Shown one piece after another: positions 1 through 64,000 of a stretch of DNA of 64,000 bases. Below the pieces are notes generated by a model that was not told the DNA's origin, did not search any database, and worked only from the letters and a program-made list of their open reading frames with translations. A program made the position numbers and the translations under genes. Every line of letters begins with the position of its first letter. Position 1 is the first letter of the stretch. This stretch comes from Thiorhodospira sibirica ATCC 700588. GTDB lineage: Bacteria; Pseudomonadota; Gammaproteobacteria; Ectothiorhodospirales; Ectothiorhodospiraceae. Location: the NCBI RefSeq assembly GCF_000227725.2, contig NZ_MU255056.1:925043-989042 (forward strand). The letters are read 5' to 3'.

Positions 1-82
1 CGGCCTCCTCGGGTGCGAACAGCTCAATGGCTTGTTGGGGATAGTCGAGGATCAGGTTTTTGAAGTTTTGATCGTGGCTCAT
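1..82 (-). CDS. Rpn-like (DUF4351/PD-(D/E)XK) nuclease family protein, N-terminus only
   Basis: The reverse strand opens with ATG at 82 and reads MSHDQNFKNLILDYPQQAIE before leaving the window. This opening is typical of a large family of transposase-like or recombination-promoting nuclease proteins (Rpn/DUF4351 type), which carry a PD-(D/E)XK nuclease fold further in. Only 27 residues are visible, so no catalytic residue can be checked. There is no clear Shine-Dalgarno sequence. Its neighbours are also accessory and partly broken genes. Confidence 0.5.
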   Translation of the reverse strand, partial: MSHDQNFKNLILDYPQQAIELFAPEEA

Positions 83-105
83 AGGGTGATTTAGTGGTTT
101 TTTTA

Positions 106-133
106 GGAGCGCCGAGCTCTGGCTCGGCACTGG
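106..133. repeat. Short palindrome with GCCGAG/CTCGGC arms (copy 1)
   Basis: GGAGCGCCGAG is followed by a six-base loop and CTCGGCA. The same GGAGCGCCGAG...CTCGGCA layout recurs at 14355-14380 with a different loop. It lies between two decayed accessory genes. Two copies suggest a small dispersed repeat of unknown function. Confidence 0.45.
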
Positions 134-159
134 GGTCATGGAACTCTGGCTCCGTGTTG

Positions 160-4576: not shown

Positions 4577-5902
4577 TTACCAGCCCAGGCGCTCCGGCAA
4601 CCACAGGACAATCTGCGGAAACACGATGAGCAGCCCCAGGGCCAGCAACTGAATCAGCACAAAGGGCATCGCCCCCCAGTAAATGACCGCCGTATTGAGG
4701 TTACGCGGGGCCACGCCCTTCATAAACAACAGCGACCAGCCAAAGGGCGGGGTTAAAAACGAGGTTTGCAGATTCATCGCGACCAAAATCGCCACCCACA
4801 CCATGGAAAATTCCGGATGACCGACAAGGAAGGGTAAAAACATCGGCAGGGCGATGTAGGTGATCTGAATCCACTCCAGAAAAAAGCCCAGAATAAACAC
4901 CAGCAGCAGCATAAACAATAAGGTGCCGTAAAAGCCTCCCGGCACCCAGTCAAACAGCGCCTCGATCAAAAACTCTCCATCCAGCCCGCGAAAGGTCAAT
5001 GCAAACACCTGCGAGGCAATCAGCACAAAAAACACCATCGCCGTGATGCGCACCGAGACGCTGATCGTCTCGCGCAGGGCCTTCTTGCTCAGGCGTCCCG
5101 CCAGCGCCGCGACAATGATGGCGCCCACCGCACCCACCGAGGCCGCCTCGGTGGGTGCCGCGACTCCGCCAATAATCGCCGCCAGCACCGCCATCACCAA
5201 GGCCAGCGGCGGCAACACCGCCAGCAGCACATCCTTGAGCAACTGCGCCCGGCTCAGCTGCGCCCGTTCAGCGGCATCAATCGCCGGCACATCCGCCGCC
5301 GACCACAGCGCCACGCCTAATAAATACAGCACATACAACCCGGCCAGCATCAGCCCCGGTACCAGCGCAGCGGCAAACAGGCTGCCCACCGACAGATTCA
5401 TGATATCCGCCAGCACCAGCAGCACCAGACTCGGCGGAATGATCTGGCCCAGCGTACCAGCGGCGCAAATGGTGCCACAGGCCACACTGGGCTTATAGCC
5501 CCGGCGCAATAAGGTCGGCAAGGCCATCAGGGTTAAAGTCACAATGGCCGCCCCGACAATGCCCGTGGCCGCGCCCATCAACACCCCGACCAGGATCACC
5601 GCCAGCGCCATCCCGCCCGGCAGCGCCCCGCAGGCATGACCGATCACCTCCAGCATACGTTCGGCAATGCGGGTTTTATCCAGCATCACCCCCATGAACA
5701 CAAACAAAGGAATTGCCAGCAAGGTGGGGTTGGTGATGGTGCCGAAAATGCGCGCCGCCAGCAGTTCAAAAAAATCGCCCTGAAAGCCGATAAAGCCAAA
5801 GACAAAGCCCACCCCGGCAATGGCAAAGCCCACCGGCATTCCAGTCAAGACCAGCACGAAAAACGCGATGATCATCATCAGGGCATAATATTCAAGCGCC
5901 AT
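4577..5902 (-). CDS. dctM: TRAP transporter large permease (DctM)
   Basis: This 441-residue, very hydrophobic protein matches DctM of tripartite ATP-independent periplasmic transporters: GMPVGFAIAGVGF near the N-terminus, GAATGIVGAAIVT, and GQIIPPSLVLLVLAD. DctM forms the ion-coupled substrate channel. It lies 64 bases after dctQ and ends the long leftward run. No periplasmic binding protein (DctP) gene is present nearby, although TRAP systems need one, so the substrate cannot be inferred and DctP must be encoded elsewhere. Confidence 0.9.
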   Translation of the reverse strand: MALEYYALMMIIAFFVLVLTGMPVGFAIAGVGFVFGFIGFQGDFFELLAARIFGTITNPTLLAIPLFVFMGVMLDKTRIAERMLEVIGHACGALPGGMALAVILVGVLMGAATGIVGAAIVTLTLMALPTLLRRGYKPSVACGTICAAGTLGQIIPPSLVLLVLADIMNLSVGSLFAAALVPGLMLAGLYVLYLLGVALWSAADVPAIDAAERAQLSRAQLLKDVLLAVLPPLALVMAVLAAIIGGVAAPTEAASVGAVGAIIVAALAGRLSKKALRETISVSVRITAMVFFVLIASQVFALTFRGLDGEFLIEALFDWVPGGFYGTLLFMLLLVFILGFFLEWIQITYIALPMFLPFLVGHPEFSMVWVAILVAMNLQTSFLTPPFGWSLLFMKGVAPRNLNTAVIYWGAMPFVLIQLLALGLLIVFPQIVLWLPERLGW

Positions 5903-5966
5903 GGAGGGCCTCGGGATCAGCGATTATGAGTAAGTTAAGTGCATGGCTAACCAGGTTTTTTCGGTC

Positions 5967-6542
5967 TTATGGGCTTTTGCGCAGGCTCAAACCAGACAGA
6001 CGGCGCAGGCGCACGCGCTGTGGCCAGACGCGATAATGAAACCACAGACGGCGGATACATCCCAAGGCGCGCACCATGGCCTGTGTCAATACCAGAAAAA
6101 AGCCGATCAGCATCAGACCCTTGGGGATGAAACGCCAGGGCATTCCGCCAGCATTGGGGGAGGTTTCGCCACGCAGATAAGACAGCTCGACAAAGGGCCA
6201 GGTGTAATACAACAGCAGCAGCGCCACCGGAATCGCCACCCCCAGCATGGTCAGCAGATCTAGCCACAAGCGGCCCACCCGTCTCAGGCGCTGCGAGAAA
6301 ATATCCACACGCACATGATCATCATGGCGCATCGCATAGCTGATCCCCAGAAGCGTCACCAGGGCCAGCAGATGCCACTCCAGTTCCTGCAGCCACATGG
6401 TGCCCATCCCGGCGCTATAGCGCGCCGCCATATTGCCAAAGACCAGCAAAACCAGCAGCAGCATGGCCACCCCGGCAAGCCCGGCCGCAAGGCCAGTCAG
6501 CCGCGCCAGTGGGCGTTCAATCCACAGAATCAGTCGATACAT
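5967..6542 (-). CDS. dctQ: TRAP transporter small permease (DctQ)
   Basis: About 191 residues with four predicted membrane helices. WLQELEWHLLALVTLLGISY followed by RHDDHVRVDIF is the conserved DctQ core. ATG at 6542 is chosen over the GTG six codons upstream because it gives the usual MYRLILWIERP opening and less overlap. Even so, the start overlaps the end of scpA by 26 bases, suggesting coupled translation. DctQ and DctM form the membrane complex. A DctQ joined to a chromosome-segregation gene in this way is unusual. Confidence 0.85.
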   Translation of the reverse strand: MYRLILWIERPLARLTGLAAGLAGVAMLLLVLLVFGNMAARYSAGMGTMWLQELEWHLLALVTLLGISYAMRHDDHVRVDIFSQRLRRVGRLWLDLLTMLGVAIPVALLLLYYTWPFVELSYLRGETSPNAGGMPWRFIPKGLMLIGFFLVLTQAMVRALGCIRRLWFHYRVWPQRVRLRRLSGLSLRKSP

Positions 6543-7395
6543 GAGGCCTCGCAGACGCACACGCCGGTGCAGGCGCGTTCAAGCCGATATAAATCGGCGC
6601 AAAGGGTTGATGCTGCACCAAGGCAATCAATTGCCCCTTGACCAGTTCCAGAACCGCCAGAAAGCTGACCACTACGCCCCCGCGCCCTTCCTCCAGGGTA
6701 AATAACTGCACAAAGGGGATAAAGCCCGGCGCGGTGTCCAGCAGGGCCAGAATCTGGCTCATCCGCTCACGCACGGACAGCGGCTCACGCTCAATATGAT
6801 GATGGCGATACATCGCCGCCCGCTGCAACACATCCTGAAAGGCCAGCAGCACATCCGCCAGCGCCACCTCCGGATAACGTGTAATCCGCGTTAAGGGTGG
6901 CGGCTCGGCACTGGCCAGATACACATCCCGCTCCAGCCGGGGCAAGCTGTCCAGATCCTGGGCTGCTTTTTTGAAGCGCTCATATTCCAAAAGACGGCGC
7001 ACCAGCTCGGCGCGTGGATCATCCTCCTCATCCGGGCTGTCACTTTGGCGCGGTAACAACATGCGTGACTTGATCTCGGCCAGCATTGCCGCCATGACCA
7101 GATATTCCGCCGCCAGCTCCAGGCGCAACTCGCTCATTAAGGCGATATAGTCCATATACTGGCGGGTGATTTCCGCAATCGGGATATTCAAAATATCCAG
7201 ATTCTGCCGCTTGATCAGATACAGCAACACATCCAGCGGCCCCTCAAAGGTTTCTAAAAACACCTCCAGGGCATCCGGCGGGATATACAGGTCTTTAGGC
7301 AAGACCAGCAGCGGCTCGCCGCACACCGTCGCCAGCGGTGTTCCCGGCAACGCGGCGGCGGGCGCTTCAGCCGGGGGCGGCGCAAGCACAGGCAT
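6517..7395 (-). CDS. scpA: Segregation and condensation protein A
   Basis: 292 residues. The kleisin N-terminal signature FEGPLDVLLYLIKRQNLDI, then IPIAEITRQY and LELAAEYLVMAAMLAEIKSR, identify ScpA, which bridges SMC heads in chromosome condensation. The first 40 residues are Ala/Pro-rich and poorly conserved, so the true start could be slightly downstream. scpB, usually next door, is missing from the window. It sits 15 bases after tolC and overlaps dctQ, an unusual neighbourhood. Confidence 0.9.
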   Translation of the reverse strand: MPVLAPPPAEAPAAALPGTPLATVCGEPLLVLPKDLYIPPDALEVFLETFEGPLDVLLYLIKRQNLDILNIPIAEITRQYMDYIALMSELRLELAAEYLVMAAMLAEIKSRMLLPRQSDSPDEEDDPRAELVRRLLEYERFKKAAQDLDSLPRLERDVYLASAEPPPLTRITRYPEVALADVLLAFQDVLQRAAMYRHHHIEREPLSVRERMSQILALLDTAPGFIPFVQLFTLEEGRGGVVVSFLAVLELVKGQLIALVQHQPFAPIYIGLNAPAPACASARPHVSTDSVD

Positions 7396-7410
7396 GGCCC
7401 AAGGGCGTGC

Positions 7411-8763
7411 TCAATCCAGCCAGAGATTCACCGCCACCAGATCATCCTCGGCAAGAATCCCGGCGGCTTCCTTCAGGCGCAAGGTACTCAGCAGATAATC
7501 ATAGCGGGTCTGGGCATAGTCACGCTGCGCACGAAAGACTTCACGCAGCGCCAGCAACACATCAACCGCCGTCCGGGTGCCAATCTCAAAGCCAGCCTCG
7601 GCAGCCTCAGCGGCTGCCTGTGTGGATTCCAGGGCGCGATTCAATGCATGCACCGAGGAAATTCCTGATACCACCGACAGATAAGCAGCGCGGGTCTGGC
7701 GGATTACCTGACGCTCGTTAAACTGCAAATCCTCGCGCACCGCATCAAACTGCTCACGCGACTGGCGCACCAGGGCACTCGTCCGCCCCCCGGTATACAC
7801 CGGGACCGTCAACTGCAAAGCAATCTGCGCATCACGGCCATCACGCAAATTACCGGCCCGCTCTGCAGGGACGCTGCTAAACTGGGTATCGGTATAACTG
7901 GCCCCCAATCCCAGCGTCGGATAATGACCGGCGCGCTGGCGCTTGATTTCCTCGGCCTGGGTTTCCACCGCCAGACGTGCCGCCAGCAGGGAAAGATTAT
8001 TATCCGTAGCCGTCTCCACCCATTGCTCAATCACCGGCGGCTCCGGGTTCACCAACGGCATCTGCGCAGACAGTGGCGCCAAATGCTCATAATGGGTGTG
8101 GGTGATCACCGTCAGGGCCTCGCGGGCAATGTCGAGTTGATTGCTGGCGGCGATTTTTTGTGCCACCGCAATATCAAATTGCGCCTGCGATTCTTTGACA
8201 TCGGTAATCGCAATCAGGCCCACCTCAAAACGGCGTTCGGATTGTTCCAGCTGGCGTCCGATGGCTTCCTGTTGAGCGGTGGCAAACAGCAGATTATCCT
8301 GCGCTGCCAGTATGCCGAAATAGGCCTCCGCCACCCGCAGCGCCAGACTCTGGCGCGCCGCATCCAGCTCCGCCGCCATGCGAGCAATCTCCAGATCGGC
8401 CTGCTTGAGCGCGATGCGCTGGGCCTGATTGTACAGACTCTGATTGAGATTCAGACTCAGGCGCGTCGTCCCATAATCCATGCTGGAGGCACCTTTGGGG
8501 TTAGTATCGCTATACGCCTGCTGGGCCGCGCCATCAATCTGCGGCAATAAGGCCGAACGCGCCAAGGGGCGAGCCTCCAAAACCGCACGATAACGCGCTT
8601 CCATCGCCCTAAGCTGGGCATCTTGGGCCAAGGCCACCTGATACACCGTCAGCAAATCGACCACCGCATCCGCATCGCCACCCTCTGCCGCCTGAACCGG
8701 GAGCACCGGACTACCCAGCCAGAGCACCGCCAACGCAAATCCCAACAGCGCGTACCTTTTCAT
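7411..8763 (-). CDS. TolC-family outer-membrane efflux protein
   Basis: About 450 residues with a signal peptide (MKRYALLGFALAVLWLGS, cleavage near VQA-AEG) and two repeats of the outer-membrane efflux coiled-coil domain. The second repeat ends with AGFEIGTRTAVDVLLALREV, a strong TolC marker. ATG at 8763 is preferred over earlier starts because GGAG lies nine bases upstream. An intrinsic terminator abuts that ribosome-binding site, so expression may depend on read-through. No adjacent periplasmic adaptor or pump gene is seen. Confidence 0.88.
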   Translation of the reverse strand: MKRYALLGFALAVLWLGSPVLPVQAAEGGDADAVVDLLTVYQVALAQDAQLRAMEARYRAVLEARPLARSALLPQIDGAAQQAYSDTNPKGASSMDYGTTRLSLNLNQSLYNQAQRIALKQADLEIARMAAELDAARQSLALRVAEAYFGILAAQDNLLFATAQQEAIGRQLEQSERRFEVGLIAITDVKESQAQFDIAVAQKIAASNQLDIAREALTVITHTHYEHLAPLSAQMPLVNPEPPVIEQWVETATDNNLSLLAARLAVETQAEEIKRQRAGHYPTLGLGASYTDTQFSSVPAERAGNLRDGRDAQIALQLTVPVYTGGRTSALVRQSREQFDAVREDLQFNERQVIRQTRAAYLSVVSGISSVHALNRALESTQAAAEAAEAGFEIGTRTAVDVLLALREVFRAQRDYAQTRYDYLLSTLRLKEAAGILAEDDLVAVNLWLD

Positions 8764-8776
8764 CAAAAAAATCTCC

Positions 8777-8798
8777 AAAAAAAACCGGCATGGGCCGG
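8777..8798 (-). terminator. Intrinsic terminator abutting the tolC ribosome-binding site
   Basis: On the reverse strand CCGGC-CCAT-GCCGG is followed directly by eight T residues, and these by the GGAG of tolC. It can end the coaBC-priA-proA-nadD transcript. Because no leader remains between the U-tract and the RBS, downstream expression would need read-through, as in an attenuator. Confidence 0.75.
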
Positions 8799-8850
8799 AA
8801 AACCATCATATAAAACACACCAAAACCGCCGCCTTTGCCCAGCCATCCCG

Positions 8851-9486
8851 CTAACTTTGCGCGCCGCGATAAAGCCCCTGTGCCGCAATATAACCAAGCA
8901 CCGCATCGGGTAACAGATACCGGGGACTGTCTCCCTGCGCCAGCAGACCACGAATCTCACTGGCCGAAATATCCATCTGACTCACCGCATGAAACAAGAC
9001 ACACCCGGCGGGGCGCTCACGCAAGCGGGCAGGCTGCTCCGTATACACCGGCTGCACCCAATCCTCAAGCTCACACGAGGCCAGATGACCGGGGCGATGC
9101 GCCACCACAATATGCGCCAGCGACAACACCTCCTCCCAGCGATACCAGGAACGCAAGCCAGCAAAGGCATCCATCCCCATCAGCAAACACACCGGTTGGC
9201 GCGGGCCACACTCGGCGCGCACACTGCGCAGCGTATCCACACTATAGGAAGGCCCGCTGCGCCCCAATTCGCGCGCATCCAGCACAAAGCCCGGCTGATC
9301 TGCAATCGCCAGCGCCACCATCGCACAGCGTTGCGCCGCACTGGCCAACGGCGTGCGCCGATGCGGCGGAATATGACACGGCATAAAGCGCACTTCGCGC
9401 AAGTCCAGATACGCCATCACCTCCAGCGCCGGGCGCAAATGCCCGAAATGAATCGGATCAAAGGTGCCGCCCAGAATCCCGATCAT
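8851..9486 (-). CDS. nadD: Nicotinate-nucleotide adenylyltransferase
   Basis: 211 residues. The N-terminal GILGGTFDPIHFGHLRPA is the nucleotidyltransferase GG-x-F-x-P-x-H-x-GH motif, and SASEIRGLL near the C-terminus is the second substrate motif. NadD converts nicotinate mononucleotide to deamido-NAD in NAD synthesis. It starts 15 bases after proA, a common proA-nadD pairing. The rsfS and rlmH genes that often follow are not here. Confidence 0.93.
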   Translation of the reverse strand: MIGILGGTFDPIHFGHLRPALEVMAYLDLREVRFMPCHIPPHRRTPLASAAQRCAMVALAIADQPGFVLDARELGRSGPSYSVDTLRSVRAECGPRQPVCLLMGMDAFAGLRSWYRWEEVLSLAHIVVAHRPGHLASCELEDWVQPVYTEQPARLRERPAGCVLFHAVSQMDISASEIRGLLAQGDSPRYLLPDAVLGYIAAQGLYRGAQS

Positions 9487-9501
9487 CCCCGGCCCATCAC
9501 A

Positions 9502-10767
9502 CTAACCGCGCACATGCCCATCGCCAAAGACCACAAATTTCAAGGTTGTCAGCCCCTCAAGCCCCACTGGCCCACGCGCATGCAGCTTATCCGTACTGAT
9601 GCCAATCTCCGCCCCCAGCCCATACTCAAAACCATCGGCAAAGCGGGTCGAGGCATTCACCATCACCGAACTGGAATCCACCTCCCGCAAAAAGCGCCGC
9701 GCCATGCTGTAATCCTGCGTCAAAATACTATCCGTATGCTGCGAGCCGTACTGATGAATATGCTCCATCGCCGCCTCCAGCCCATCCACCACGCGAATAC
9801 TCAGAATCGGCGCCAGATATTCGGTATACCAGTCTTCCTCGGTTGCTGCCAGCATCTGCGGGAGATGTTCACGGCATTGCGCACAGCCGCGCAGCTCCAC
9901 CCCTTTTTCCTGAAATAAGGGCGCCAGTCGGGACAACAGCCTCGCCGCAACCGGCTGATCCAGCAACAAAGTCTCCAGGGTATTACACGTTCCATAGCGC
10001 TGCGTCTTGGCATTCATCACCACCGCCACGGCCTTGTCCAGATCGGCGCTGCGCTCCACAAACACATGACACACCCCGTCTAAATGCTTGATCACCGGAA
10101 TCAGCGACTCCTCACTCACCCGCGCAATCAGCCCCTTACCCCCACGCGGCACAATCACATCCACATATTCCTGCATACGCAACAAGGCCCCGACCGCCGC
10201 ACGATCCGTCGTCTCAACCACCTGCACCGCATCCGCCACCAAACCGCTGGCCTCAAGACCGCTGCGAATACACCGCGCCAGGGCCTGATTGGAATGAATC
10301 GCCTCCGAACCGCCGCGCAAAATCGCCGCATTGCCGGACTTTAGACATAAGGCCGCCGCATCCACCGTCACATTGGGCCGCGACTCATAAATAATCCCGA
10401 TAACCCCCAACGGCACCCGCATTCGGCCCACCTGAATCCCGCTAGGGCGATAACACACATCCGACATCACCCCCACCGGATCAGGCAAAGCCGCCACCTC
10501 ACGCAAGCCCTGCGCCATCGCCTCAATCCGCTGCGGATTAAAGGCCAGACGATCCAGCAAAGCCGCATCCAGACCATTGCGCTCACCCGCCGCCAAATCC
10601 CGCTGATTCTCCGCCAGCAAATCCCCCGCCTGCGCCTCAATTTCACACGCAATCTTTACCAGGGCCTGATTTTTCACGCCGGTATCCGCCCGCGCCATCA
10701 CCCGCCCGGCCCGGCGTGCCGCCTGCCCCACACCCTGCATATACGCTACCAGCTCGGCATCACTCAT
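9502..10767 (-). CDS. proA: Gamma-glutamyl phosphate reductase
   Basis: 421 residues with ATG at 10767; the frame is open much further upstream but only from here resembles the family ([18 protein letters not shown]). [18 protein letters not shown] is the nucleotide-binding motif, and Cys in [12 protein letters not shown] is the catalytic thiol. ProA reduces gamma-glutamyl phosphate to the semialdehyde in proline synthesis. A second possible ATG lies at 10800. It is placed between priA and nadD. Confidence 0.93.
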
Positions 10768-10831
10768 CCCCACACCCCCACTCAAATTAAAAGAATACAT
10801 GCCCGCCATTATACCCAATGGACGTGCCATG

Positions 10832-13039
10832 CTACCCCATATCCACCGGATCAATATCCACCGACCAGCGCACCTGCCGCGCCAACGGCAGCGCATCAAA
10901 CTCACACACCCGCGCCCGCAACAAACGCTGCAACACCGAACGCGACGGTGCATGCAACAACAAATGCGCCCGAAACCACCCCGCCCGCCGCTGCATCGGC
11001 GCCGGCACCGGGCCAAGCACCGCCACCCCCTGCGCATCAGGCAAAAGATACGCACGCACCGCCGCTAAAAACTGCTCCCCCAGCGCACTATCCCGCGCCT
11101 CAGCCCGAATCAACGCAAAAGCCGCAAACGGCGGCAAGCCCGCCAAACGGCGCTGCTCCAACAAATCCTGACTCACCACCGCATAGCCCGACTGCAACAA
11201 GGTCCGCAAAAAGGGATGCTCCGGATGAAAAGTCTGGATCAACACCTCACCGGGACGCTCAGCCCGCCCGGCCCGTCCAGCCACCTGCGTAATCACCTGC
11301 GCCAGGCGCTCCTGCGCGCGAAAATCCGTACTGAACAAACCTTGATCCACGCCCAAAATCACCGCCAGCGACACCCCCGGAAAATCATGCCCCTTCGCCA
11401 ACATCTGCGTCCCGATCAAAATGCGATACTGCTGCGCATGAATCGCCGCAAACACCTGCTCAAACGCCTCACGCCCCTGCGTACTATCCCGATCAATCCG
11501 CACCAGCGGCGCATCCGGAAAATGCCGCGCCAGCGCCGCCTCAATGCGTTGCGTTCCCTCCCCGCGTGGACGCAGGCGCCCCTGACACCCCGGACACACC
11601 CGCACCGGCGCCGAGCGCGTACCGCAATGATGACAACACAAAAGCCCGGCCCGCTGATGCCACGTCAAATGCGCATCACACTGCGGACACTGCGCCGACC
11701 AGCCACAGCCCTCACACACCAACGCCGGCGCAAAGCCGCGCCGATTCAAAAACAACAACACCTGCCCCCCGGCCTCCAGATGCGCACTGATCGCATCCAG
11801 CACACTGACCGACAAGCCCTCATCATGCCACTGCCGACGCATATCCACCACGCGCACACTCGGCAACCGCGCCCCCCCGGCCCGGCGCGGCAAACGCACA
11901 CACTGATACGCCCCCTTCGCCACATTCGCCAGACTCTCCAGCGAAGGCGTCGCCGACCCCAGCACCACCGGAACATCCTCACGATAGCCCCGCAACACCG
12001 CCAAATCCCGCGCATGATAGCGCAAGCCCTCATGCTGCTTCAGCGACGCATCATGCTCCTCATCCACCACAATCAGGCCCGGCTGCGCCCACGGCACAAA
12101 CACCGCCGAGCGCGTCCCGATAATCACCCGCGCCTGCCCGCTACGCGCCGCCAGCCACCCCTGCAAACGCACCTTCTCACTCAAGCCCGAATGCAACACC
12201 GTCATCGCCACCGGCAAGCGCGCCCGAAAACGCGCCAACAACTGCGGCGTCAACGCAATCTCCGGCACCAACACCAAACACTGCCGCTCCTGCGCCAGCG
12301 TCGCCGCCATCAAACTCAAATACACCTCCGTCTTCCCGCTCCCCGTCACCCCCTCCAACACATACACCCGATGCCCCGCCTGCCCCTGCACCGTCGCCAC
12401 CGCCTGCGCCTGATCCGCATTCAACACCGGCAACGTAGCGGACGTAGCGGACGCATCCTGCCTTGTAGCGGACGTATCCTGCGTTCGCTCCCGCCTCTCC
12501 CGCACCACCCAGCCACGCTGCACCAACCCCTGCATCGCCCCGCGCCAGTTCCCCAACGCCAGCAACCGCGCATCATCCGCCGCCAGCCCCCCAGGCACCT
12601 GCTGCAACACCTGCAACACCGCCTGCTGACGCGGCGCACGACGCAACGCCGCCAAATCCGCACCCAGACCGGCAGCCGTCAACTGAAAAAACACCACAGG
12701 GGGAAAAAGAGCAGGCGCACCGCCGCGCAACAAACCGGGCAACGCCGTGGCGATCACCTCGCCGAAAGGATAATGATAATAATCCGCCGTCCACTGCAAC
12801 AACCGCAACAACGCCGCCGAAAGCAACGGTACCGCATCAAGAACATCACTGACAACGCGCAAATCCTCACGCGCCGCATACGCCGCCCCAGGCTCAGGCA
12901 ACGCCACCACCACCCCCACCAACGCCCGCCGCCCAAACGGCACCCGCACCCGCGCCCCCACCACCGCCACCTGACCGGGCGCCAACCGATAATCAAACAC
13001 CCGATACAGCGGCACCGGCAGAGCAACACGCACCAACAT
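10832..13039 (-). CDS. priA: Primosomal replication restart helicase PriA
   Basis: 735 residues from ATG at 13039, close to the usual PriA length. Visible parts are the 3'-DNA-binding domain (residues about 1-105), Walker [17 protein letters not shown] box [11 protein letters not shown], the zinc-binding Cys cluster (CEGCGW, CPQC, CCHHCG, CPGC) and helicase motifs to the end. PriA restarts stalled replication forks. Residues about 184-202 ([17 protein letters not shown]) are encoded by a REP-like repeat between the N-terminal part and the helicase core. The coding strand is very G-rich: in 12901-12960 it has 38 G to 9 C. Confidence 0.93.
12435..12488 (+). repeat. REP-like palindromes inside priA
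   Basis: A full 24-base unit at 12465-12488 has head GTAG, arm CGGACGTA, loop TCC and arm TGCGTTCGC. Partial copies start at the GTAGs at 12435 and 12444. The length and layout match the intergenic copies at 26702 and 46155. The insertion keeps the priA frame and encodes an Ala/Ser/Thr/Gln/Asp-rich stretch. Confidence 0.7.
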
Positions 13040-13064
13040 AAAGCCTAACCCAAAGGCCGCAACA

Positions 13065-14276
13065 TCAACACCCCTTCGCCAGATACCGCGCAACAATCAC
13101 ATCCAGCAACGCATGCGCCAAAGCCTCCTTAGACTGACGCGGCAAATCAACCCCGCCATCCCCCCACAACACAGACAAGGCATTATCCGCAACATCAAAG
13201 CCCTGCCCCTCACTCACATCATTCGCCGCAATCATATCAAGCCCCTTCCGCACCAACTTATCGCGCGCCAGTTCCACAAGCCGCCCCGTCTCCGCCGCAA
13301 AGCCCACCACAAAAGGACGCCCCACCCCCAACGCCGCCACCTCCGCCAAAATATCCGGATTCCTCACCAACGACACACACCAATCATCCGCCCCCTTCTT
13401 CAACTTCTGCGCCGCCACCGCCGCCGCCCGATAATCCGCCACCGCCGCCGCCCCAATAAACACATCACAGCCCCCCACCTCCGCCAACACCGCCTCCCGC
13501 ATCTGCGCCGCCGACTCAACCGCAACATGGCGCACCCCATACGGCACCGCCAACGCACACGGCCCACTCACCAACACCACCTCCGCCCCCCGACACGCCG
13601 CCGCCTGCGCCAACGCATACCCCATCCGGCCCGAACTCCGATTCCCCACATACCGCACCGGATCAAGCGCCTCCCGCGTCGGCCCCGCCGTCAACACCAC
13701 CCGCCGCCCCCGCAACGGCCACGGCCCAACACACTGCTCCAGCGCACCCAACAACACCGGAATCTCCAACAACCGGCCCTCCCCCACCTCCCCACACGCC
13801 TGCACCCCCTGCCCCGGCCCCAACACAAACACCCCCCGCCGCCGCAACGTAGACACATTCTCCTGCGTCGCCGCATTCAACCACATCCCATGATTCATCG
13901 CCGGCGCCACACACAACGGCGTCTGCACCAACCGCGCCAGACACAAAGTACTCAACAAATCATCCGCCAACCCATGCGCCAGTCTGGCGATAAAATTAGC
14001 GCTGGCCGGAGCAATCACAATCACCTCCGCCCAGCGCGCCAGACTGATATGATCCATCCCCGCCTCAGCCTGCGCATCAAACACCGCCGACCGTACTGGA
14101 AACCCCGACAACGCCTGAAAACTCAATGGCGCCACAAACTCACACGCCGCCGCCGTCATCACCACCCGCACCTCACACCCCGCCTCCTGCAAACGCCGCA
14201 CAAAATCACACGCCTTATACGCCGCCACACTCCCCGTCACCCCCAACAACACCCGCCTACCGTGCAACATACCCAT
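13065..14276 (-). CDS. coaBC: Bifunctional phosphopantothenoylcysteine synthetase/decarboxylase
   Basis: 403 residues, normal for Dfp/CoaBC, which performs two steps of coenzyme A synthesis. The CoaC half shows LLGVTGSVAAYKACDFVRRL (flavin binding) and PAMNHGMW. The CoaB half (after about residue 190) shows TAGPTREALDPVRYVGNRSS and GRMGYALAQAA. It is the first gene of the leftward run. The IS5-family element lies 110 bases upstream of its start and may have displaced part of its promoter. Its DNA has the most extreme strand bias in the window. Confidence 0.94.
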   Translation of the reverse strand: MGMLHGRRVLLGVTGSVAAYKACDFVRRLQEAGCEVRVVMTAAACEFVAPLSFQALSGFPVRSAVFDAQAEAGMDHISLARWAEVIVIAPASANFIARLAHGLADDLLSTLCLARLVQTPLCVAPAMNHGMWLNAATQENVSTLRRRGVFVLGPGQGVQACGEVGEGRLLEIPVLLGALEQCVGPWPLRGRRVVLTAGPTREALDPVRYVGNRSSGRMGYALAQAAACRGAEVVLVSGPCALAVPYGVRHVAVESAAQMREAVLAEVGGCDVFIGAAAVADYRAAAVAAQKLKKGADDWCVSLVRNPDILAEVAALGVGRPFVVGFAAETGRLVELARDKLVRKGLDMIAANDVSEGQGFDVADNALSVLWGDGGVDLPRQSKEALAHALLDVIVARYLAKGC

Positions 14277-14354
14277 AACGATTATCCTGACAAAGCCTCA
14301 TACGCCGCGCATACTAACATAGCCACTCCCCGGAACCGCCGGGGACCGCCGACT

Positions 14355-40202: not shown

Positions 40203-40206
40203 GAGA

Positions 40207-51704: not shown

Positions 51705-52634
51705 ATGAACGAAGCGAAATGGGGTTCCAGTCTTGAATCAAATCGCGCCGCAGGTACGCGCTTAGAACTCCTCTTGTTTCAATTGGAAAGCCCTCACCTG
51801 TACGGCATTAATGTGTTCAAGGTACAAGAGGTCATTCCCTCTCAGCAGCTGACCCGCTTGGCCGGGGCACACCCCTTGGTCAGCGGCATCGCCACGCTGC
51901 GCGGAGTGACCATGTCCATCATTGACCTTTCCAGAGCGATTGGTGGCCCACCGATGCGCAACCCGGAACAGGGCTATATCATCATTACCGAATACAACCG
52001 CTCAGTGCATGGTTTTTTGATCCGTCGCATGGATCGCATCATCAATACCCAATGGGACAAGGTACAACCCTCGCCGCCCGCTGCCGGGCACAATGCCTAT
52101 GTCACCGCCATTACCCTGGTTGACAAGCAGATTGTCGAGATTCTCGATGTGGAAAAAGTGCTTGATCAGGTGGTTCGCGCCAAAACCGAGGTCTCGGAAC
52201 AATACAGCTCGCAGATCCAGCCAGGACATTATGAGGTGCTGGTCGTGGATGATTCCTCCGTGGCGCGCAATCAGATTCGCCGCTCCCTGGAACAGCTCGG
52301 CATCAAATGCACCCTGGCCACCGATGGGCGCGACGCACTCAAGCTCATCGAGCGCCTCACCAAGGAAGGCGAAGATCTCAGCACCCGCTTTGACATGATC
52401 GTCTCAGACATTGAAATGCCGGAAATCGACGGCTATCAGCTCACCATGCACCTGCGCAGTGACCCGCGCTTCAAAACCGTCTATATCCTGCTGCACTCCT
52501 CCATCAGCGGCGTGTTTAACGTCGATATGGTCAAGCGTACCGGTGCCAACAAATTCATCCAGAAATACCATCCCGATGACCTGGCCAAGGCCGTCCTGGA
52601 AAGTATCAGCGCCAAAACCGCCAGTCGCGGATGA
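51705..52634 (+). CDS. cheV: Chemotaxis protein CheV (CheW-receiver fusion)
   Basis: 309 residues. The CheW-like domain (about 10-165) has LYGINVFKVQEVI and LRGVTMSIIDLSRAIGG. The receiver (about 175-309) has VVDDSSVARNQIRR and MIVSDIEMPEIDGYQL with the acceptor Asp. CheV couples receptors to CheA and adapts signalling. ATG at 51705 is favoured; a GTG at 51678 lies too near its AGGAGG. No other che gene adjoins. Confidence 0.93.
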   Translation: MNEAKWGSSLESNRAAGTRLELLLFQLESPHLYGINVFKVQEVIPSQQLTRLAGAHPLVSGIATLRGVTMSIIDLSRAIGGPPMRNPEQGYIIITEYNRSVHGFLIRRMDRIINTQWDKVQPSPPAAGHNAYVTAITLVDKQIVEILDVEKVLDQVVRAKTEVSEQYSSQIQPGHYEVLVVDDSSVARNQIRRSLEQLGIKCTLATDGRDALKLIERLTKEGEDLSTRFDMIVSDIEMPEIDGYQLTMHLRSDPRFKTVYILLHSSISGVFNVDMVKRTGANKFIQKYHPDDLAKAVLESISAKTASRG

Positions 52635-52697
52635 GCCGACCCCGCGCAGACACCCCATTTTACGATTCGGCCAAGCCATCACCCCATCGCCCGCGTC

Positions 52698-54008
52698 ATG
52701 CCATTGAATTCCCTAACCCTGCGGGTTAGCCTGATCGCCCTGGTGGTCGTGATGGTATTTACCATCCTCACCGCGCTGGCCTTGGAGCGCGCCTTTCATG
52801 AAAGTGCGCAGCAGGCGTTGCAGGAACGGCTGCAGGCGCAAATTTACCTGTTGATGGGCATCAGCGATGTCGAAAGCGACGGCAGCGTGCGCCTGCCTGA
52901 ACGCCTGCCCGAGGCCCGCCTCATGCTCCCTGGTTCAGGTCTGTATGCGCAAATCCGCACCCCCGATGAACACATCCTCTGGCGCTCCCCCTCCTCGCTG
53001 GGACAAGCACTGGATTTTAGCGAACGCGGCGGCTTCAAGATGCGCCTCACCGTGGACTGGGAAATCGCACCCGGCCACACCCACCCGCTGAGCTTTCTGG
53101 TCCTGGAAGACCCGCGTGCCTTCACCGCACAAATCCAGCAATACCGCCAAAGTCTGCGCATCTGGCTGGGGAGTCTGGGATTTTTATTACTCTTGGCGCA
53201 GGGCGTTGCGCTGTATCTGGGTCTGCGCCCCTTACGCACTGTCGCCCATGAAGTCCAGGCCATGGAACGCGGCAAACAAAGCGAGCTAGAAGGCCGCTAC
53301 CCGCTGGAATTGCGCAGTCTGACCGACAACCTCAACAATCTGATGCGCCATGAGCGGGCGCAGATTCGTCGCTACCGCGATGCCCTGGGCGATCTTGCCC
53401 ACAGCCTGAAAACCCCGCTGGCGGTACTGCGCTCAACCCTGCACGGCAAAGATCCCGATCACGCCCTGATGCTGGAACACGTCGAGCGCATGGATCGCAT
53501 CGTCGCCTACCAGCTCCAGCGCGCCGCCACCTCCGGGCGCAGCGTGTTTAGCACCCCCGTCCCGGTGGCTCCGCTGGTGCAGCGCCTCAGCAACACCTTA
53601 CAAAAAGTACACCCCGGCAAGACCATGGTCGTACAGCTGGATATCCCGTCAGATATCTGCTTTCGCGGCAATGAAGGCGACCTGATGGAACTCTTGGGCA
53701 ATGTGCTGGATAACGCCTGGAAATACGGCCATCAACGGGTGTTAATCCGCGCTGCCATTGACCATGACAGCCTGCAACTACGCATCGAAGACGACGGCCC
53801 CGGCATCCCCGCCGCCAAAGCTCAGGCCATGCTCAGGCGCGGCACCCGCCTGGATGAAGCCATCCCCGGCCAAGGCATCGGCCTTGCCGTCGTCAACGAC
53901 ATCGTACACGCCTACGAAGGACAGCTCACCATCAGCCGCGCCAGGTGGGGCGGCGCCGCCATCATCCTCAAACTCCCCGGCAGCCTCATCCCGCCAGCGA
54001 AATCCTGA
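52698..54008 (+). CDS. PhoQ-like sensor histidine kinase, orphan
   Basis: 436 residues. Two membrane helices (about 8-28 and 155-175) flank a periplasmic domain. A HAMP-like segment is followed by the H-box GDLAHSLKTPLAVLRSTL with the phospho-accepting His, N-box LLGNVLDNAWKYG, and G-boxes IEDDGPGIP and GQGIGLAVVND. The H-box wording resembles PhoQ. The usual response regulator gene is missing; cheV lies upstream and a Crp-type regulator faces it. Confidence 0.88.
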   Translation: MPLNSLTLRVSLIALVVVMVFTILTALALERAFHESAQQALQERLQAQIYLLMGISDVESDGSVRLPERLPEARLMLPGSGLYAQIRTPDEHILWRSPSSLGQALDFSERGGFKMRLTVDWEIAPGHTHPLSFLVLEDPRAFTAQIQQYRQSLRIWLGSLGFLLLLAQGVALYLGLRPLRTVAHEVQAMERGKQSELEGRYPLELRSLTDNLNNLMRHERAQIRRYRDALGDLAHSLKTPLAVLRSTLHGKDPDHALMLEHVERMDRIVAYQLQRAATSGRSVFSTPVPVAPLVQRLSNTLQKVHPGKTMVVQLDIPSDICFRGNEGDLMELLGNVLDNAWKYGHQRVLIRAAIDHDSLQLRIEDDGPGIPAAKAQAMLRRGTRLDEAIPGQGIGLAVVNDIVHAYEGQLTISRARWGGAAIILKLPGSLIPPAKS

Positions 54009-60445: not shown

Positions 60446-60658
60446 CAGTTTGCGCGGGATATCCGGGCCGTTGGGCGCGGGGAGCGCAGCACCGCCCTGC
60501 ACAAGCAGGTTAGGCCGCCCTCAATCCCGATCCTCCATCAGTTTTGGGGTTGGATAAAAGAATCTGGGAGCCCCGGCCTGGCACGACAGCAACGCCGTGT
60601 GCCGTGACTGTGCCGGGGCTCCCAGGAAAGAATGGGTAGAGTGGCTATTTTAGCAAAT

Positions 60659-63600
60659 TTATGGGGCGGGCAGAATTTTCACGCGGGCGCCTGCGGTACG
60701 GGCATGGGCGCTGGGCGCATACATATCCTCCACAAATGACGGCGGCAGCGCATATTCACCGGGCGTTACGGCGCGCATCAGGTAAGCCACTTTAAATTGA
60801 TTATCCTCCTGGCTTAAATCCAGCTGGGCAATAAAGCGATCATCGCGCAGATCCACATGTACCACCCCGGTGCTTTGGGTGGCCTCTGGATCAATCAGGC
60901 CGGTCAGCGTCTCGCCAAGCCAGGCCAGATCACGCAGATTTGCCCCACCTAAAGCGGCATTTTCCAGCTCAAAACCAGCGGCGAGCAGATCAACCACCAG
61001 CAGTCGCCGAGCGGGCAGATAAGGGCGTTGCATCTGTCCTTCAAGCACCGCAACCACCACCTCGTTTTGCGAAAGCTGCTCCAGTGTCAGCGGCGTGCCT
61101 TCGCGGGTGTAGAACTGGCGGCTGAGTTGCAGGCCGTGGCTGCTGGGGCCACTGTCATTGAGCGGGAAACCGGCAGTGCTTAAAGCGTAATACAGCGCCT
61201 GGGTGCCATTCTGGCTAAGGGTTATCCCCTGACGCAGACGGTCAACCGGCAGGGCGCTGAGCCAGATGCCTTGCGTGACCTGCTGGCGCTGTCCATCCAG
61301 GGTAAATTCAAAGGCAGCACTGCGGGATTTGAGATGGTGAGCGGCGACTAACAGCCAGGCCATTTCCTGAGTGCTGACGGCCATGTTCGGCTGATAGCGT
61401 TCCTGTAGCTGTGTTGCCAGCTCAAAGAGCGTTTCAACTGGGCGCTGACTGACTGCCGCCAAGGCCAATAAGGCCGCCCGATCACGCAGATCCGAGCCAT
61501 AGGTGCGATAAATCCATGTCCCGCTGGCCGTTTCCTGATGGCCGTATGCGGCGTTGAAGGCGTTATCAGCACGGGCGCTGTCACCGGCGTGGGTCAGTGC
61601 CGCGCCCAGATGGGCCTTGGCCATGCGAGTCGGCAGTGCCGCCAGATAGGTATCGGCAAAATGACGCAGTTCAGCGGTCTTGCTGGTGCCGCTGTGGGCG
61701 AGCACATAATGGGCATAGCTCACCGCTGGTAGTTGTGCCGACTCAAAATCACCGGAGGCCACCGCCCGTCCGAGAAAGGCCAAACCGCGCCGATAGCTGG
61801 CTTCATTGATGGAAACACCGACCTGCTGCGCCTGTTGCAAGAAATCCAGGGCATAGGCACTGAGCCAAAGATCGGCAGGGCCGCCGGATGACCATAAACC
61901 AAAGCCCCCTTCGGCATTTTGCATCGCTTCGATGCGCGCAATCGCTTGCTGGATGCCGCGATGGGTGGCCGGGGGCTGTTCCGTGTGCCAGTAGAGCAAG
62001 GGCAGCGCCCGGCTGGTTACCTGCTCCAGACAGCCATAGGGATACTGCTGCAGCTGCTTGAGCAGACTCGCTACATCCACCGTCGGCACGCTGGCCAGCA
62101 AGATGCTGGCGCGGGCCTGGTCTGGGTGTACATCGCTAAGCAGTTCAGGATCAATGCGCAGGGCTTCGCCGGGTTGCAGGTAGCCGCTGCGGGTGCGGGT
62201 GATGAAGGCGTGCGCCGGTCTGACGCTCAGGTCCCAATGGCGTTCAATCGCCATCGCATCAGGGCCTTGCAGCTGCAGATGTAATTGTCCGTCGCCGATT
62301 TGCCGGGCGTGAACGCGCACATCCATCCAGGCGCGTTGCTCCGGGAGGAGGTTCAGCGTCAAGGTGCTCTGGGCGGCGATGACCTCACCATCTCCGGCCA
62401 AACTGACCGTATACGTCCCCGCCGGGGCATCCAGCGCCGTCAGACTCAGACGCACATCGGCGGCATCGCCCGGCGCCAGAAAGCGCGGCAAGGACGGTTC
62501 GGCAATCAGCGGATCACGCACAAGTACGGTGGTTTGTGCGCTGCCTACGGCCTCGGCATTAAACGCCACCGCCATCAGGCGCAAACGCCCGTTAAAATCA
62601 GGAATATCCAGCGTGACCTCGCCATATCCCTTGGCATCCAGTGCCACCACCCCGCTAAACAAAGACACCACTCGCGAGCTGCGCTTACCCAGGGCAGCCA
62701 GATTTTCTGCGCCGATGTCGCCGCCGGTGCGGATACTGCCGGGATTGCCCAGCCAACCATCCAGCAGGCGACCATACAGATCACGTATCTCCACCCCAAG
62801 CTGGCGCTTGCCATAATAGTGCGCTGCCGGGTCAGGGGCACGATAGGCGGTGATTTGTAACACCGCATCATCCACCGCTGCCAAGGTCATGCTGGCCGGA
62901 CCGCTATGGCCCTTGACCTGCACCGGAATTACCACCGACTGGCGGGGCGTGATCTGTTCAGGTGCGGTGAGCGTCACATCCAGCGTGCGCGGGCTACGAT
63001 CCATCGCCAGCCAGGCCAAGCCCACTGCCCGCGCCGGACCTCTGCTCGCCCCAGCCTGGGCGGGTCGCAAGGCCGTGGCGGTGATGTAAGCCCCGGCCTG
63101 CCAATCGCCCACCGGCAAAAGAAACTCGGCGCCTTCGGCAGGCACCTGGGCACGATAGACCCCGCGCACCCCGTCGTTTAATACCGCCAAGACCACCTCA
63201 CCGGCAAAGGGCGGCACCAAGCGTACCTTGGCTTTTTCACCCGGCAGATACTGCGCCTTATCCAGAGTCACCTGCATCTTGTCAGGAGTCTGTGTGGCCT
63301 GCCCGGTGCTGCCATAGCCCACGCTAAAGGCAAAACTGCTCACCGCACCGCTGTGCGGGTCTTTGATCTCCAGCCGATAATGCCCCCAGTCTTGCTGCAG
63401 TCTCAGCGTGCCGGGCTGCTCTGCCGTCCCGGTCTGTATCTTCCCGGAACTGAGATAACGGTCGGTGCTGACCGTGCGATAAGCCCAGTGCTCATGATCA
63501 CGATACCAAAAGTAATCCCGCACCTCTTCATACAAGACCCACTCCAGCGGATAGGCAGACATGGCCTCACCTTGGCTTGACAGCGCAATGATGGCAAATT

Positions 63601-64000
63601 CAGCCGCCTGATTCAGGCCAATTTCCCCCTCGCCCCATAAGGGCCGCACCCCGATCATAGGACGCTGCGGGGCTACCGCCATGCGCAATGAACGATTAAC
63701 AGGCCGACCGCCCTCTTCAAACAGGGTCACCCGCAGCCGTGCCTCCAGAGGGCGAGAGCTCTCGGGCAAGGTATTCAGTAGCAGCGCCAGACGGGACTGC
63801 CCTTGGGCATCGGTTGCAGGCACCGTCAGGCTGTGGCGAAAGGGTGTCCAGGATTCATCGGCACGGCCGAAATGATAGCCCGGATAGCCTTCCAGCGAGC
63901 CTTGCTGCGCCTCAATGAGCAGTTCTGCTTCACCGCGCAAACCCGCTGCCACGGCCCCATAAAGAAAACGCGCCGCAATCTCCACCGCTAGCGGTTGGCC
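60659..64000 (-). CDS. Bacterial alpha-2-macroglobulin, N-terminus cut by window edge
   Basis: At least 1113 codons, open to the right edge; the GTG at 63985 is internal. YPYGCLEQVTSRALPLLY contains the CxEQ thioester motif that covalently traps attacking proteases. MG domains precede it and an alpha-helical TED domain follows (NAEGGFGLWSSGGPADLWLS). Full-length members are about 1600-1900 residues with a lipoprotein signal, so 500 or more residues lie outside. It often pairs with pbpC, which would be beyond the left end of this transcript or elsewhere. Confidence 0.93.
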   Translation of the reverse strand, partial: GQPLAVEIAARFLYGAVAAGLRGEAELLIEAQQGSLEGYPGYHFGRADESWTPFRHSLTVPATDAQGQSRLALLLNTLPESSRPLEARLRVTLFEEGGRPVNRSLRMAVAPQRPMIGVRPLWGEGEIGLNQAAEFAIIALSSQGEAMSAYPLEWVLYEEVRDYFWYRDHEHWAYRTVSTDRYLSSGKIQTGTAEQPGTLRLQQDWGHYRLEIKDPHSGAVSSFAFSVGYGSTGQATQTPDKMQVTLDKAQYLPGEKAKVRLVPPFAGEVVLAVLNDGVRGVYRAQVPAEGAEFLLPVGDWQAGAYITATALRPAQAGASRGPARAVGLAWLAMDRSPRTLDVTLTAPEQITPRQSVVIPVQVKGHSGPASMTLAAVDDAVLQITAYRAPDPAAHYYGKRQLGVEIRDLYGRLLDGWLGNPGSIRTGGDIGAENLAALGKRSSRVVSLFSGVVALDAKGYGEVTLDIPDFNGRLRLMAVAFNAEAVGSAQTTVLVRDPLIAEPSLPRFLAPGDAADVRLSLTALDAPAGTYTVSLAGDGEVIAAQSTLTLNLLPEQRAWMDVRVHARQIGDGQLHLQLQGPDAMAIERHWDLSVRPAHAFITRTRSGYLQPGEALRIDPELLSDVHPDQARASILLASVPTVDVASLLKQLQQYPYGCLEQVTSRALPLLYWHTEQPPATHRGIQQAIARIEAMQNAEGGFGLWSSGGPADLWLSAYALDFLQQAQQVGVSINEASYRRGLAFLGRAVASGDFESAQLPAVSYAHYVLAHSGTSKTAELRHFADTYLAALPTRMAKAHLGAALTHAGDSARADNAFNAAYGHQETASGTWIYRTYGSDLRDRAALLALAAVSQRPVETLFELATQLQERYQPNMAVSTQEMAWLLVAAHHLKSRSAAFEFTLDGQRQQVTQGIWLSALPVDRLRQGITLSQNGTQALYYALSTAGFPLNDSGPSSHGLQLSRQFYTREGTPLTLEQLSQNEVVVAVLEGQMQRPYLPARRLLVVDLLAAGFELENAALGGANLRDLAWLGETLTGLIDPEATQSTGVVHVDLRDDRFIAQLDLSQEDNQFKVAYLMRAVTPGEYALPPSFVEDMYAPSAHARTAGARVKILPAP

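What the first reader, a model, noticed from the sequence alone, without database searches (positions are those of the whole stretch)
1..64000. Sawtooth GC skew that crosses gene strands
Hand counts of single 60-base lines on the + strand give G/C of 19/12 (901), 9/38 (12901), 7/31 (14221), then 25/10 (16381), 30/12 (17401), falling to 11/30 (30301), then 28/12 (31201), 10/23 (38701), 27/15 (39181), 25/16 (42541), 16/27 (53941), 27/15 (60661) and 13/25 (63901). Skew drifts from G-rich to C-rich over several to about 15 kb and then jumps back within 1-2 kb. It drifts through both leftward and rightward genes, so coding strand alone does not explain it. Most jumps fall at 3' ends of transcription units or at scars (IS5 element, cassette remnant). 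Candidate causes are a transcription-distance mutational gradient, repeated local replication initiation, or many rearrangements.
Basis: partly seen in the sequence, partly recalled or inferred. Interest (0 to 1): 0.8.

Follow-up and report, generated by a model that had tools for sequence, protein, structure and literature searches.

The report
Base-composition ramp along each operon
In this unnamed bacterium most operons drift from a G/T-rich to a C/A-rich coding strand from start to end, one operon in the window to an extreme, which points to a strand-specific mutation process tied to operons that the relatives examined do not show.

Summary
The skew jumps are real but very uneven: one extreme domain (window 4577-14336, GC skew to -0.50) and modest teeth. 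The domain is the coaBC-priA-proA-nadD-tolC-scpA-dctQM operon: at its start 98% of C/T-choice codons end in T and 98% of A/G-choice codons in G (background 64%, 54%), fading over about 5 kb. Orthologues are normal. A weaker ramp is genome-wide: 55 of 68 transcription units over 3 kb fall from G/T to C/A, 5' to 3', and 32 of 37 in held-out DNA; five family relatives and 75 other loci do not. Four synonymous site classes agree, GC content is flat, codon position 1 moves: mutation more than codon choice. This yields a top-strand sawtooth whatever the gene direction; opposite-strand neighbours are uncorrelated, so the skew mostly does not cross gene strands, though three extreme tracts elsewhere do. 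Of 38 near-complete family genomes only this one lacks a family-5-type glycosylase, but a distant genome with similar losses is flat. Strand exposure by transcription is likeliest; dispersed replication starts are not excluded.

The parts
4577..14336 (-). Extreme strand-asymmetric domain: eight-gene operon whose minus (coding) strand is G/T-rich, strongest at its 5' end (right), fading leftward
   Evidence: fourfold GC skew 0.88, 0.73, 0.50, 0.29, 0.19, 0.39, 0.19, 0.29 from first to last gene; neighbouring genes beyond 4577 normal
13065..14276 (-). coaBC; fourfold sites A 0.01 C 0.05 G 0.83 T 0.10; protein enriched in V,G,C,W,F against orthologues
   Evidence: TIGR00521 441 bits
10832..13039 (-). 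priA (replication restart helicase); fourfold GC skew 0.73
   Evidence: NF004067 928 bits
9502..10770 (-). proA; fourfold GC skew 0.50
   Evidence: NF001221 614 bits
8851..9486 (-). nadD; fourfold GC skew 0.29
   Evidence: NF000839 271 bits
7411..8763 (-). TolC-family outer membrane protein; fourfold GC skew 0.19
   Evidence: TIGR01844 332 bits
6517..7395 (-). scpA-like segregation/condensation protein A; fourfold GC skew 0.39
   Evidence: NF000995 209 bits, below its cut-off of 315
5967..6542 (-). probable dctQ (small TRAP permease; named from its place beside dctM, no family hit); fourfold GC skew 0.19
   Evidence: 0 families
4577..5902 (-). dctM (large TRAP permease); fourfold GC skew 0.29; left end of the domain, where the convergent + genes are normal (0.00, -0.02, 0.04)
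   Evidence: TIGR00786 278 bits
14337..14386 (.). Sharp right edge of the domain: hairpin (REP-like) repeat with core GAGCGCCGAGTTGCACTCGGC; 18 matches at E up to 1 (this copy included, several weak) to an 80-base query in 864 kb of the genome
   Evidence: composition turns balanced here
14387..15598 (+). IS5-type insertion beside the edge, balanced composition; near-identical partial copy at G000:C4:245622-246551, whose middle is masked
28448..30343 (+). Modest tooth: single-gene unit falling -0.08, -0.21, -0.39 (residual thirds); jump at its 3' end near 30-31 kb
31108..38592 (-). Modest tooth: ten-gene unit, residual thirds +0.07, -0.01, -0.17; last gene 31108-31554 strongly C/A in coding sense (fourfold GC skew -0.55)
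39065..46030 (-). Modest tooth: six-gene unit, residual thirds +0.01, -0.04, -0.20; 3' gene C-rich (fourfold GC skew -0.55)
51705..54008 (+). Modest tooth: two-gene unit, residual thirds -0.26, -0.26, -0.45

Best explanation
The genome carries a strand-asymmetric mutation gradient tied to transcription units. Near the 5' end of a unit the coding strand gains C-to-T and A-to-G changes; near the 3' end the template strand gains them, so the coding strand turns C/A-rich. The most likely mechanism is deamination of cytosine and adenine in the DNA strand left unpaired by RNA polymerase or by RNA-DNA hybrids: sense transcription weighs on 5' ends, antisense transcription from downstream intergenic DNA on 3' ends. 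It is visible here and not in the relatives examined perhaps because the lineage lost a glycosylase (family-5-type UDG) able to remove uracil and hypoxanthine. The coaBC-priA operon is the extreme of this process in the window. Shown: the gradient, its units, its sign, its replication in held-out DNA, its absence in the relatives sampled, the C/T and A/G classes, the absence of the glycosylase. Inferred: direction of change (no close relative to polarise it), deamination, strand exposure by transcription, antisense transcription, the causal role of the lost enzyme.
For: Discovery: 55 of 68 units over 3 kb fall; fifths +0.091, +0.039, +0.011, -0.049, -0.129. Hold-out 400 kb, scored with the gene model and class means of the discovery set: 32 of 37, first-last 0.222. 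Units over 1 kb: 154 of 195 and 81 of 94, controls 186 of 407; Fisher p 4.5e-22. Controls over 3 kb: G006 4 of 18, G022 7 of 18, 75 loci 49 of 95, G005 1 of 6, G016 2 of 8, G019 4 of 8. T/C, G/A, fourfold G/C and T/A all fall (p 5e-8 to 8e-7), Leu TTG/CTG and codon position 1 too; GC content flat, p=0.41. Noncoding spacers weakly agree (p=0.021; controls 0.76) and CoaBC V+G+C+W+F is 0.298 against 0.214, sd 0.011, in 11 orthologues. No replichore component in 15 blocks. Family-5-type UDG in 43 of 47 family genomes, absent in G000 and in three genomes 66-80% complete; only one UDG-superfamily match, of family 4; no match to endonuclease V or Ung.
Against: G030, another class member with one family-4-strength UDG match and no endonuclease V match, is flat: 24 of 52 units over 1 kb, 9 of 16 over 3 kb, so repair loss is not sufficient. 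The ribosomal-protein genes, presumably the most transcribed, are only mildly G/T-biased (residuals -0.04 to +0.24 over 18 kb, no clear fall) and tuf is opposite, so strength does not track expected expression. CRISPR-cas and pilus genes, which I expect to be weakly expressed, are among the most extreme. The upward jump at divergent junctions is not significant (+0.040, p=0.33). Codon position 2 shows no gradient (p=0.58) and noncoding 100-bp flanks no 5'/3' difference. The slope may partly reset at gene starts inside units (-0.026 per kb, se 0.014). 3' effects are equal beside convergent and tandem neighbours, so not read-through from a convergent gene. G006 leans the opposite way (4 of 18, p=0.03). 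Three tracts run through genes of both strands.
Confidence: 0.45

Rival explanations
1. Dispersed replication initiation: forks start in many intergenic regions and meet inside units, giving the N-shaped skew of human replication domains at operon scale in a bacterium.
For: Upward jumps at convergent and tandem unit borders with a near-linear fall between, and an end-to-end difference of 0.12-0.19 in all length classes above 1 kb; no replichore-wide asymmetry in 15 blocks; in 8 of 10 extreme tracts of the own genome (the other two not classed) the G/T strand runs 5'-3' away from the sharp edge (my reading); three tracts cross gene strands.
Against: dnaA is present (C4:367 kb). The tracts look one-sided rather than two-sided (reading). 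Opposite-strand neighbours are uncorrelated. The divergent-junction jump is not significant.
Confidence: 0.15
2. Element-directed tracts: the extreme tracts arise where hairpin repeats, CRISPR leaders or insertion elements are nicked and a strand is displaced outward, exposing it to deamination; the weak genome-wide ramp is a separate process.
For: Sharp edges at the window hairpin repeat, a hairpin at C4:2139475, a CRISPR array at C4:1972.3 kb, the 3' end of cas genes at C4:1551.0 kb near another array, and an inverted repeat at G022:C1:1224.0 kb.
Against: Of 15 other copies of the window repeat that were profiled, most lack a comparable tract (one lies about 2 kb from the cas tract, three beside C-rich genes at 160-162 kb). 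The nuoA-D tract starts at an ordinary operon start. The G022 tract has the opposite polarity. Edges were inspected after the tracts were found, with no control for how often such repeats lie in any intergenic region.
Confidence: 0.15
3. Selection on codons or on mRNA (for example translation speed, or C-poor starts that resist Rho) varies along units.
For: tuf looks codon-selected (residual -0.52; EF-Tu); slopes exist inside single genes; codon position 2 shows none.
Against: Codons uncommon in this genome rise together (GGG, TTG, CGG); pyrimidine and purine classes move in one strand sense with GC flat, and codon position 1 moves too; CoaBC composition is bent and noncoding spacers weakly agree.
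Confidence: 0.07
4. Horizontal import or rearrangement: DNA from strongly skewed donors or many inversions, with the IS5 insertion as scar.
For: A second IS5 copy; a mosaic methyltransferase-like gene with a sharp internal change at C4:2728 kb.
Against: CoaBC is 57-65% identical to its matches in the 24 other family genomes searched, which hold the best scores; smooth fade across eight genes; inversions cannot make 32 of 37 held-out units fall in one sense.
Confidence: 0.05

Closest known systems
Opposite GC skews at the 5' and 3' ends of genes in unicellular fungi (McLean and Tirosh 2011, PMC3315797; abstract and Discussion read)
   Same: Coding-strand skew of opposite sign at the two ends of a gene with intermediate values between, present at fourfold sites, bending amino-acid use; mutation is one of two causes proposed
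   Different: Opposite sign (fungi C-rich at 5', G-rich at 3'); there AT skew is uniform along genes and positively correlated with GC skew, which its authors hold against C-to-T deamination; here G/C and T/A move together as deamination predicts, and the unit is the bacterial operon
Human replication skew N-domains (for example PMC3320577; search listing only; the shape is recalled)
   Same: Upward jumps and near-linear fall between them
   Different: Megabase scale against 1-20 kb; tied to replication timing in human cells, not tested here; this bacterium has dnaA
Leading-strand G/T excess of bacterial chromosomes (PMC10030826, passages read)
   Same: G and T excess on one strand, attributed to deamination of exposed DNA
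   Different: No replichore-wide component seen here; asymmetry is organised by unit

Membership tests
Transcription-associated strand asymmetry | Asymmetry follows the coding strand, not the chromosome arm | tested here: met
   same-strand rho 0.45, opposite-strand rho -0.04; no arm component. Three extreme tracts are exceptions
Transcription-associated strand asymmetry | C-to-T and A-to-G type classes change together on the coding strand | tested here: met
   coaBC operon; 68 units
Transcription-associated strand asymmetry | Strength rises with transcription level | tested here: inconclusive
   no expression data; ribosomal-protein genes only mildly biased, nuoA-D strongly biased
Replication N-domain | Upward jump at all domain borders, linear fall between | tested here: inconclusive
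   convergent +0.134, tandem +0.091, divergent +0.040 not significant; linear-like fall; the unknown coding baseline shifts divergent and convergent values in opposite ways
Replication N-domain | Borders are replication start zones | not testable with these tools
   needs marker-frequency or Okazaki data
oriC replichore skew | Mean top-strand skew of one sign per chromosome arm | tested here: not met
   15 blocks, top component -0.046 to +0.051, approximate errors 0.02-0.04
Horizontally acquired island | Genes nearer to foreign lineages than to relatives | tested here: not met
   CoaBC 57-65% identical to family matches, which score best among 40 genomes searched; other genes of the operon not tested this way

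The most novel reading that the evidence does not exclude
A bacterium whose chromosome is copied largely from many dispersed start points at operon boundaries, rather than mainly from oriC, so that each operon behaves like a miniature replication N-domain, with fork-associated deamination recorded as a skew ramp in every unit.
Probability: 0.12. Interest if true: 0.95.

Novelty: new variant of a known kind. Interest (0 to 1): 0.74.

Why it matters
Strand asymmetry in bacteria is usually read as a record of replication from oriC. Here it records operons. If transcription-driven, this genome is a natural readout of sense and antisense transcription and of operon borders. If replication-driven, it would be a bacterium with dispersed initiation. 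Either way a long-open question, how much mutation asymmetry comes from transcription, becomes testable by comparing one lineage with its flat relatives, with a named candidate gene loss to test.

Tried and rejected
Rejected: gene strand alone (position matters); replichore skew; read-through from convergent neighbours as the source of 3' asymmetry (equal beside tandem neighbours); loss of RNase HI, Mfd or Rho (family matches present); loss of DnaA (match present); import of the coaBC operon.

Weakened: repair loss as sole cause. G030 was named in advance as a test and came out flat. The test is imperfect: G030 is 34.7% G+C and 96% complete, and its lack of Ung was inferred from PF03167 only; TIGR00628 was not run on it. 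G035 (6 of 14 units over 1 kb fall) and G026 (9 of 20) are flat as well.

Led nowhere: plasmid search (two records, IS transposase only), Rfam and tRNA scans (0 hits), the idea that every copy of the window hairpin repeat bears a tract, noncoding flanks. Early coordinates for proA were in the wrong frame; the corrected values are.

Limits: gene calls come from a codon-score script of mine, not a published caller; units are inferred from strand and gaps under 150 bp; about 40% of the genome was sampled. The control set called '80 loci' in script outputs holds the 75 of 80 loci that are at least 10 kb long. The coaBC domain was left out of discovery statistics (slopes); searches also left out C4:1960-1973 kb; one search left out nothing of the hold-out. 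Tract edges and polarity were read by eye; of the 12 runs listed I make 10 tracts and left two unclassed (tuf and 2575 kb). The names of ribosomal-protein genes other than rplC, and of cas genes other than the Cas3-like and Cas7-like ones, are recognised by me from sequence; nuoA, B, C, D, N, tuf and rplC were checked, the others of the nuo run not.
Full report
What was claimed and what is there. One-kb windows confirm abrupt sign changes near 14-15.5, 30-31 and 39 kb. The teeth are very unequal. One domain reaches GC skew -0.50 with AT skew up to +0.48; the 114 windows starting outside 8001-14001 lie between -0.16 and +0.20.

The extreme domain. Window 4577-14276 is a run of eight minus-strand genes with small gaps: coaBC, priA, proA, nadD, a tolC-family gene, a scpA-like gene, probable dctQ and dctM. 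Fourfold GC skew on the coding strand runs 0.88, 0.73, 0.50, 0.29, 0.19, 0.39, 0.19, 0.29 from first to last gene. At C/T-choice codons the T fraction is 0.98 in coaBC, 0.96 in priA and 0.91 in proA against 0.64 in background; at A/G-choice codons the G fraction is 0.98, 0.98 and 0.82 against 0.54. In coaBC plus priA, leucine moves to TTG (0.73 against 0.19) and glycine to GGG (0.67 against 0.23), codons less used elsewhere in this genome. The proteins are bent too: V+G+C+W+F is 0.298 in CoaBC against 0.214 (sd 0.011, maximum 0.230) in 11 orthologues; for PriA 0.249 against 0.195 (sd 0.017, maximum 0.250) in 79. coaBC and priA rank first and second of 566 sampled genes. Orthologues are ordinary: 13 coaBC rows, two of them second copies of the same locus, -0.13 to +0.07; 80 priA rows, -0.36 to +0.32. 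So the state is peculiar to this lineage as far as sampled.

The edges. On the right the asymmetry stops within about 50 bp at a hairpin repeat followed by an IS5-type element. On the left it stops at a convergent junction; the + genes beyond have fourfold skew 0.00, -0.02 and 0.04.

A genome-wide ramp. I scored each synonymous site as G/T (+1) or C/A (-1) minus the mean of its codon class. In 864 kb, with the coaBC domain left out, 55 of 68 same-strand units over 3 kb fall along the unit (p=2.7e-7); fifths are +0.091, +0.039, +0.011, -0.049, -0.129. Same pipeline, controls: G006 4 of 18 (p=0.03 the other way), G022 7 of 18, 75 loci of other gamma- and betaproteobacteria 49 of 95. I then took 400 kb of new sequence from the same genome and scored it with the gene model and class means of the discovery set: 32 of 37 units fall (p=7.4e-6), first-minus-last fifth 0.222, against 0.22 in discovery. 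Three more family members do not fall: G005 1 of 6, G016 2 of 8, G019 4 of 8. For units over 1 kb the counts are 154 of 195 and 81 of 94, controls 186 of 407 (Fisher p 4.5e-22). In the window 12 of 15 units fall.

Nature of the ramp. T/C, G/A, fourfold G/C and fourfold T/A all fall with p between 5e-8 and 8e-7, Leu TTG/CTG and codon position 1 fall too, codon position 2 does not (p=0.58), and fourfold GC content does not change (p=0.41); 131 control units show no synonymous gradient, though codon position 2 has p=0.019 there. Noncoding spacers inside units agree weakly (0.514 against 0.495, p=0.021; controls p=0.76), but 100-bp flanks of units do not differ. The end-to-end difference is 0.12-0.19 in all length classes above 1 kb and 0.08 for 0.5-1 kb. 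Single-gene units also fall. Best reading: strand-specific mutation, with coding-strand C-to-T and A-to-G excess at 5' ends and the opposite at 3' ends; the direction of change is inferred, since no close relative was available to polarise it.

Why it looks like a strand-crossing sawtooth. A 5'-to-3' fall in coding sense appears on the top strand as a left-to-right fall in both + and - units, with upward jumps at unit borders. Jumps are +0.134 at 81 convergent borders, +0.091 at 143 tandem borders with gaps over 150 bp, +0.040 (not significant) at 78 divergent ones, and -0.058 at 183 joints with gaps under 20 bp. Opposite-strand neighbours are uncorrelated (rho -0.04, n=143), same-strand neighbours correlate (rho 0.45, n=533); in the 75 loci opposite-strand neighbours do correlate (rho 0.30, n=348), as ordinary replication skew would give. 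In 15 blocks of this genome no chromosome-arm component is visible.

Extreme tracts elsewhere. A tract at C4:1960-1972.2 kb keeps the top strand C/A-rich through a minus-strand cmr operon (Cmr3, Cmr2, RAMP and Cas6 matches) and through a + gene with a KfrA_N domain, peaking at the edge of a CRISPR array. Others lie in cas genes at 1549-1551 kb (Cas3-like and Cas7-like matches nearby), in pilus/secretion genes at 2137-2139.5 kb (T2SSF match), in the nuo run (residual +0.5 to +0.7 in nuoA-C, -0.46 in nuoN 16 kb on, with an internal rebound to +0.35), around the family-4 UDG gene at 2577-2580 kb, and in a mosaic methyltransferase-like gene at 2728 kb. Three of them cross gene strands (1960-1972, 2577-2580 and 2728 kb). 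In 8 of 10 tracts the G/T strand runs 5'-3' away from a sharp edge; this is my reading of profiles, not a blind count, and two (tuf, 2575 kb) were not classed. The relative G022 has one tract at pfkB/mnmG of the opposite polarity, beginning at an inverted repeat.

Candidate cause. Matches to RNase HI, Mfd, Rho and DnaA are present. Ung (TIGR00628) has no match in any of the 10 family genomes searched, G000 included, and matches in the 4 other class members searched. Endonuclease V has no match in G000 and matches in 7 of the 19 family genomes searched, G000 counted among them. G000 has one UDG-superfamily match, of family 4 (204 bits to TIGR00758). A second UDG type, which I name family 5 from recalled motifs and which misses the family-4 cut-off, occurs in 43 of 47 family genomes; it is missing in G000 (98% complete) and in three genomes 66-80% complete, while all 37 other near-complete genomes have it (the tool's tally says 46 of 47 because weak family-4 matches count). 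UDG families 2, 3 and 5 can act on hypoxanthine and other deaminated bases, while a family-4 enzyme acted only on uracil (PMC5387724, passages read), which suits a C-to-T plus A-to-G signature. This is one lineage contrast only. Against sufficiency: G030, chosen in advance, is flat (24 of 52).

Mechanism and its limits. Deamination of a strand exposed by transcription explains sign, unit dependence and, with the repair loss, the restriction to this lineage, if antisense transcription is allowed from downstream intergenic DNA; the 3' effect tends to grow with the size of the downstream gap. It does not explain why ribosomal-protein genes are mild while cas and pilus genes are extreme. Dispersed replication starts give the same geometry and explain the strand-crossing tracts better, but the tracts look one-sided and dnaA is present. 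I rate transcription 0.45, dispersed initiation 0.15, element-directed nicking for the tracts 0.15.

Comparison with print. The nearest pattern found is in unicellular fungi, with opposite sign and an AT pattern that its authors hold against deamination (PMC3315797, abstract and Discussion). Five searches of the held library listed no paper whose title or abstract start describes a bacterial operon-scale ramp (one search showed 20 of 21 and 12 of 23 papers). Apart from PMC3315797, PMC10030826 and PMC5387724 the papers were seen as listings only, and subscription journals are largely missing from the library.

Noticed in passing
G022:C1:1224000-1227300 (L130 14000-17300): A relative without the general ramp has one extreme tract (pfkB-like gene fourfold GC skew -0.82, mnmG-like gene -0.40, very C/A-rich noncoding DNA) that starts at an inverted repeat; polarity opposite to the tracts in G000.
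   Followed up: partly
G000:C4:1960000-1973100 (L191): Type III (cmr) CRISPR locus and a KfrA_N gene lie in the most extreme tract seen, ending at a CRISPR array; the cas genes near 1551 kb show the same geometry.
   Followed up: partly
G000:C4:2576884-2578212 (L197): The only uracil-DNA glycosylase gene found carries a long tandem-repeat stretch (GVAGATRSQED units) before its domain and itself lies in a strong G/T tract.
   Followed up: no
G000:C4:2725500-2729100 (L156): A methyltransferase-like gene (my reading, no family search) broken by mobile elements is a mosaic of strongly skewed and normal DNA with a sharp change inside the reading frame, as if part was replaced by recombination.
   Followed up: no
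window 14387-15598: The IS5-type transposase is split into two open frames; a copy at C4:245.6-246.5 kb is near identical where readable.
   Followed up: no
   Followed up: no
window 54500-57000: Stretch of about 48% G+C in a 57% window with few convincing genes.
   Followed up: no
family of G000 (handles G001-G009): Canonical Ung (TIGR00628) has no match in any of the 9 relatives of the family searched, though it does in the 4 other class members searched.
   Followed up: no
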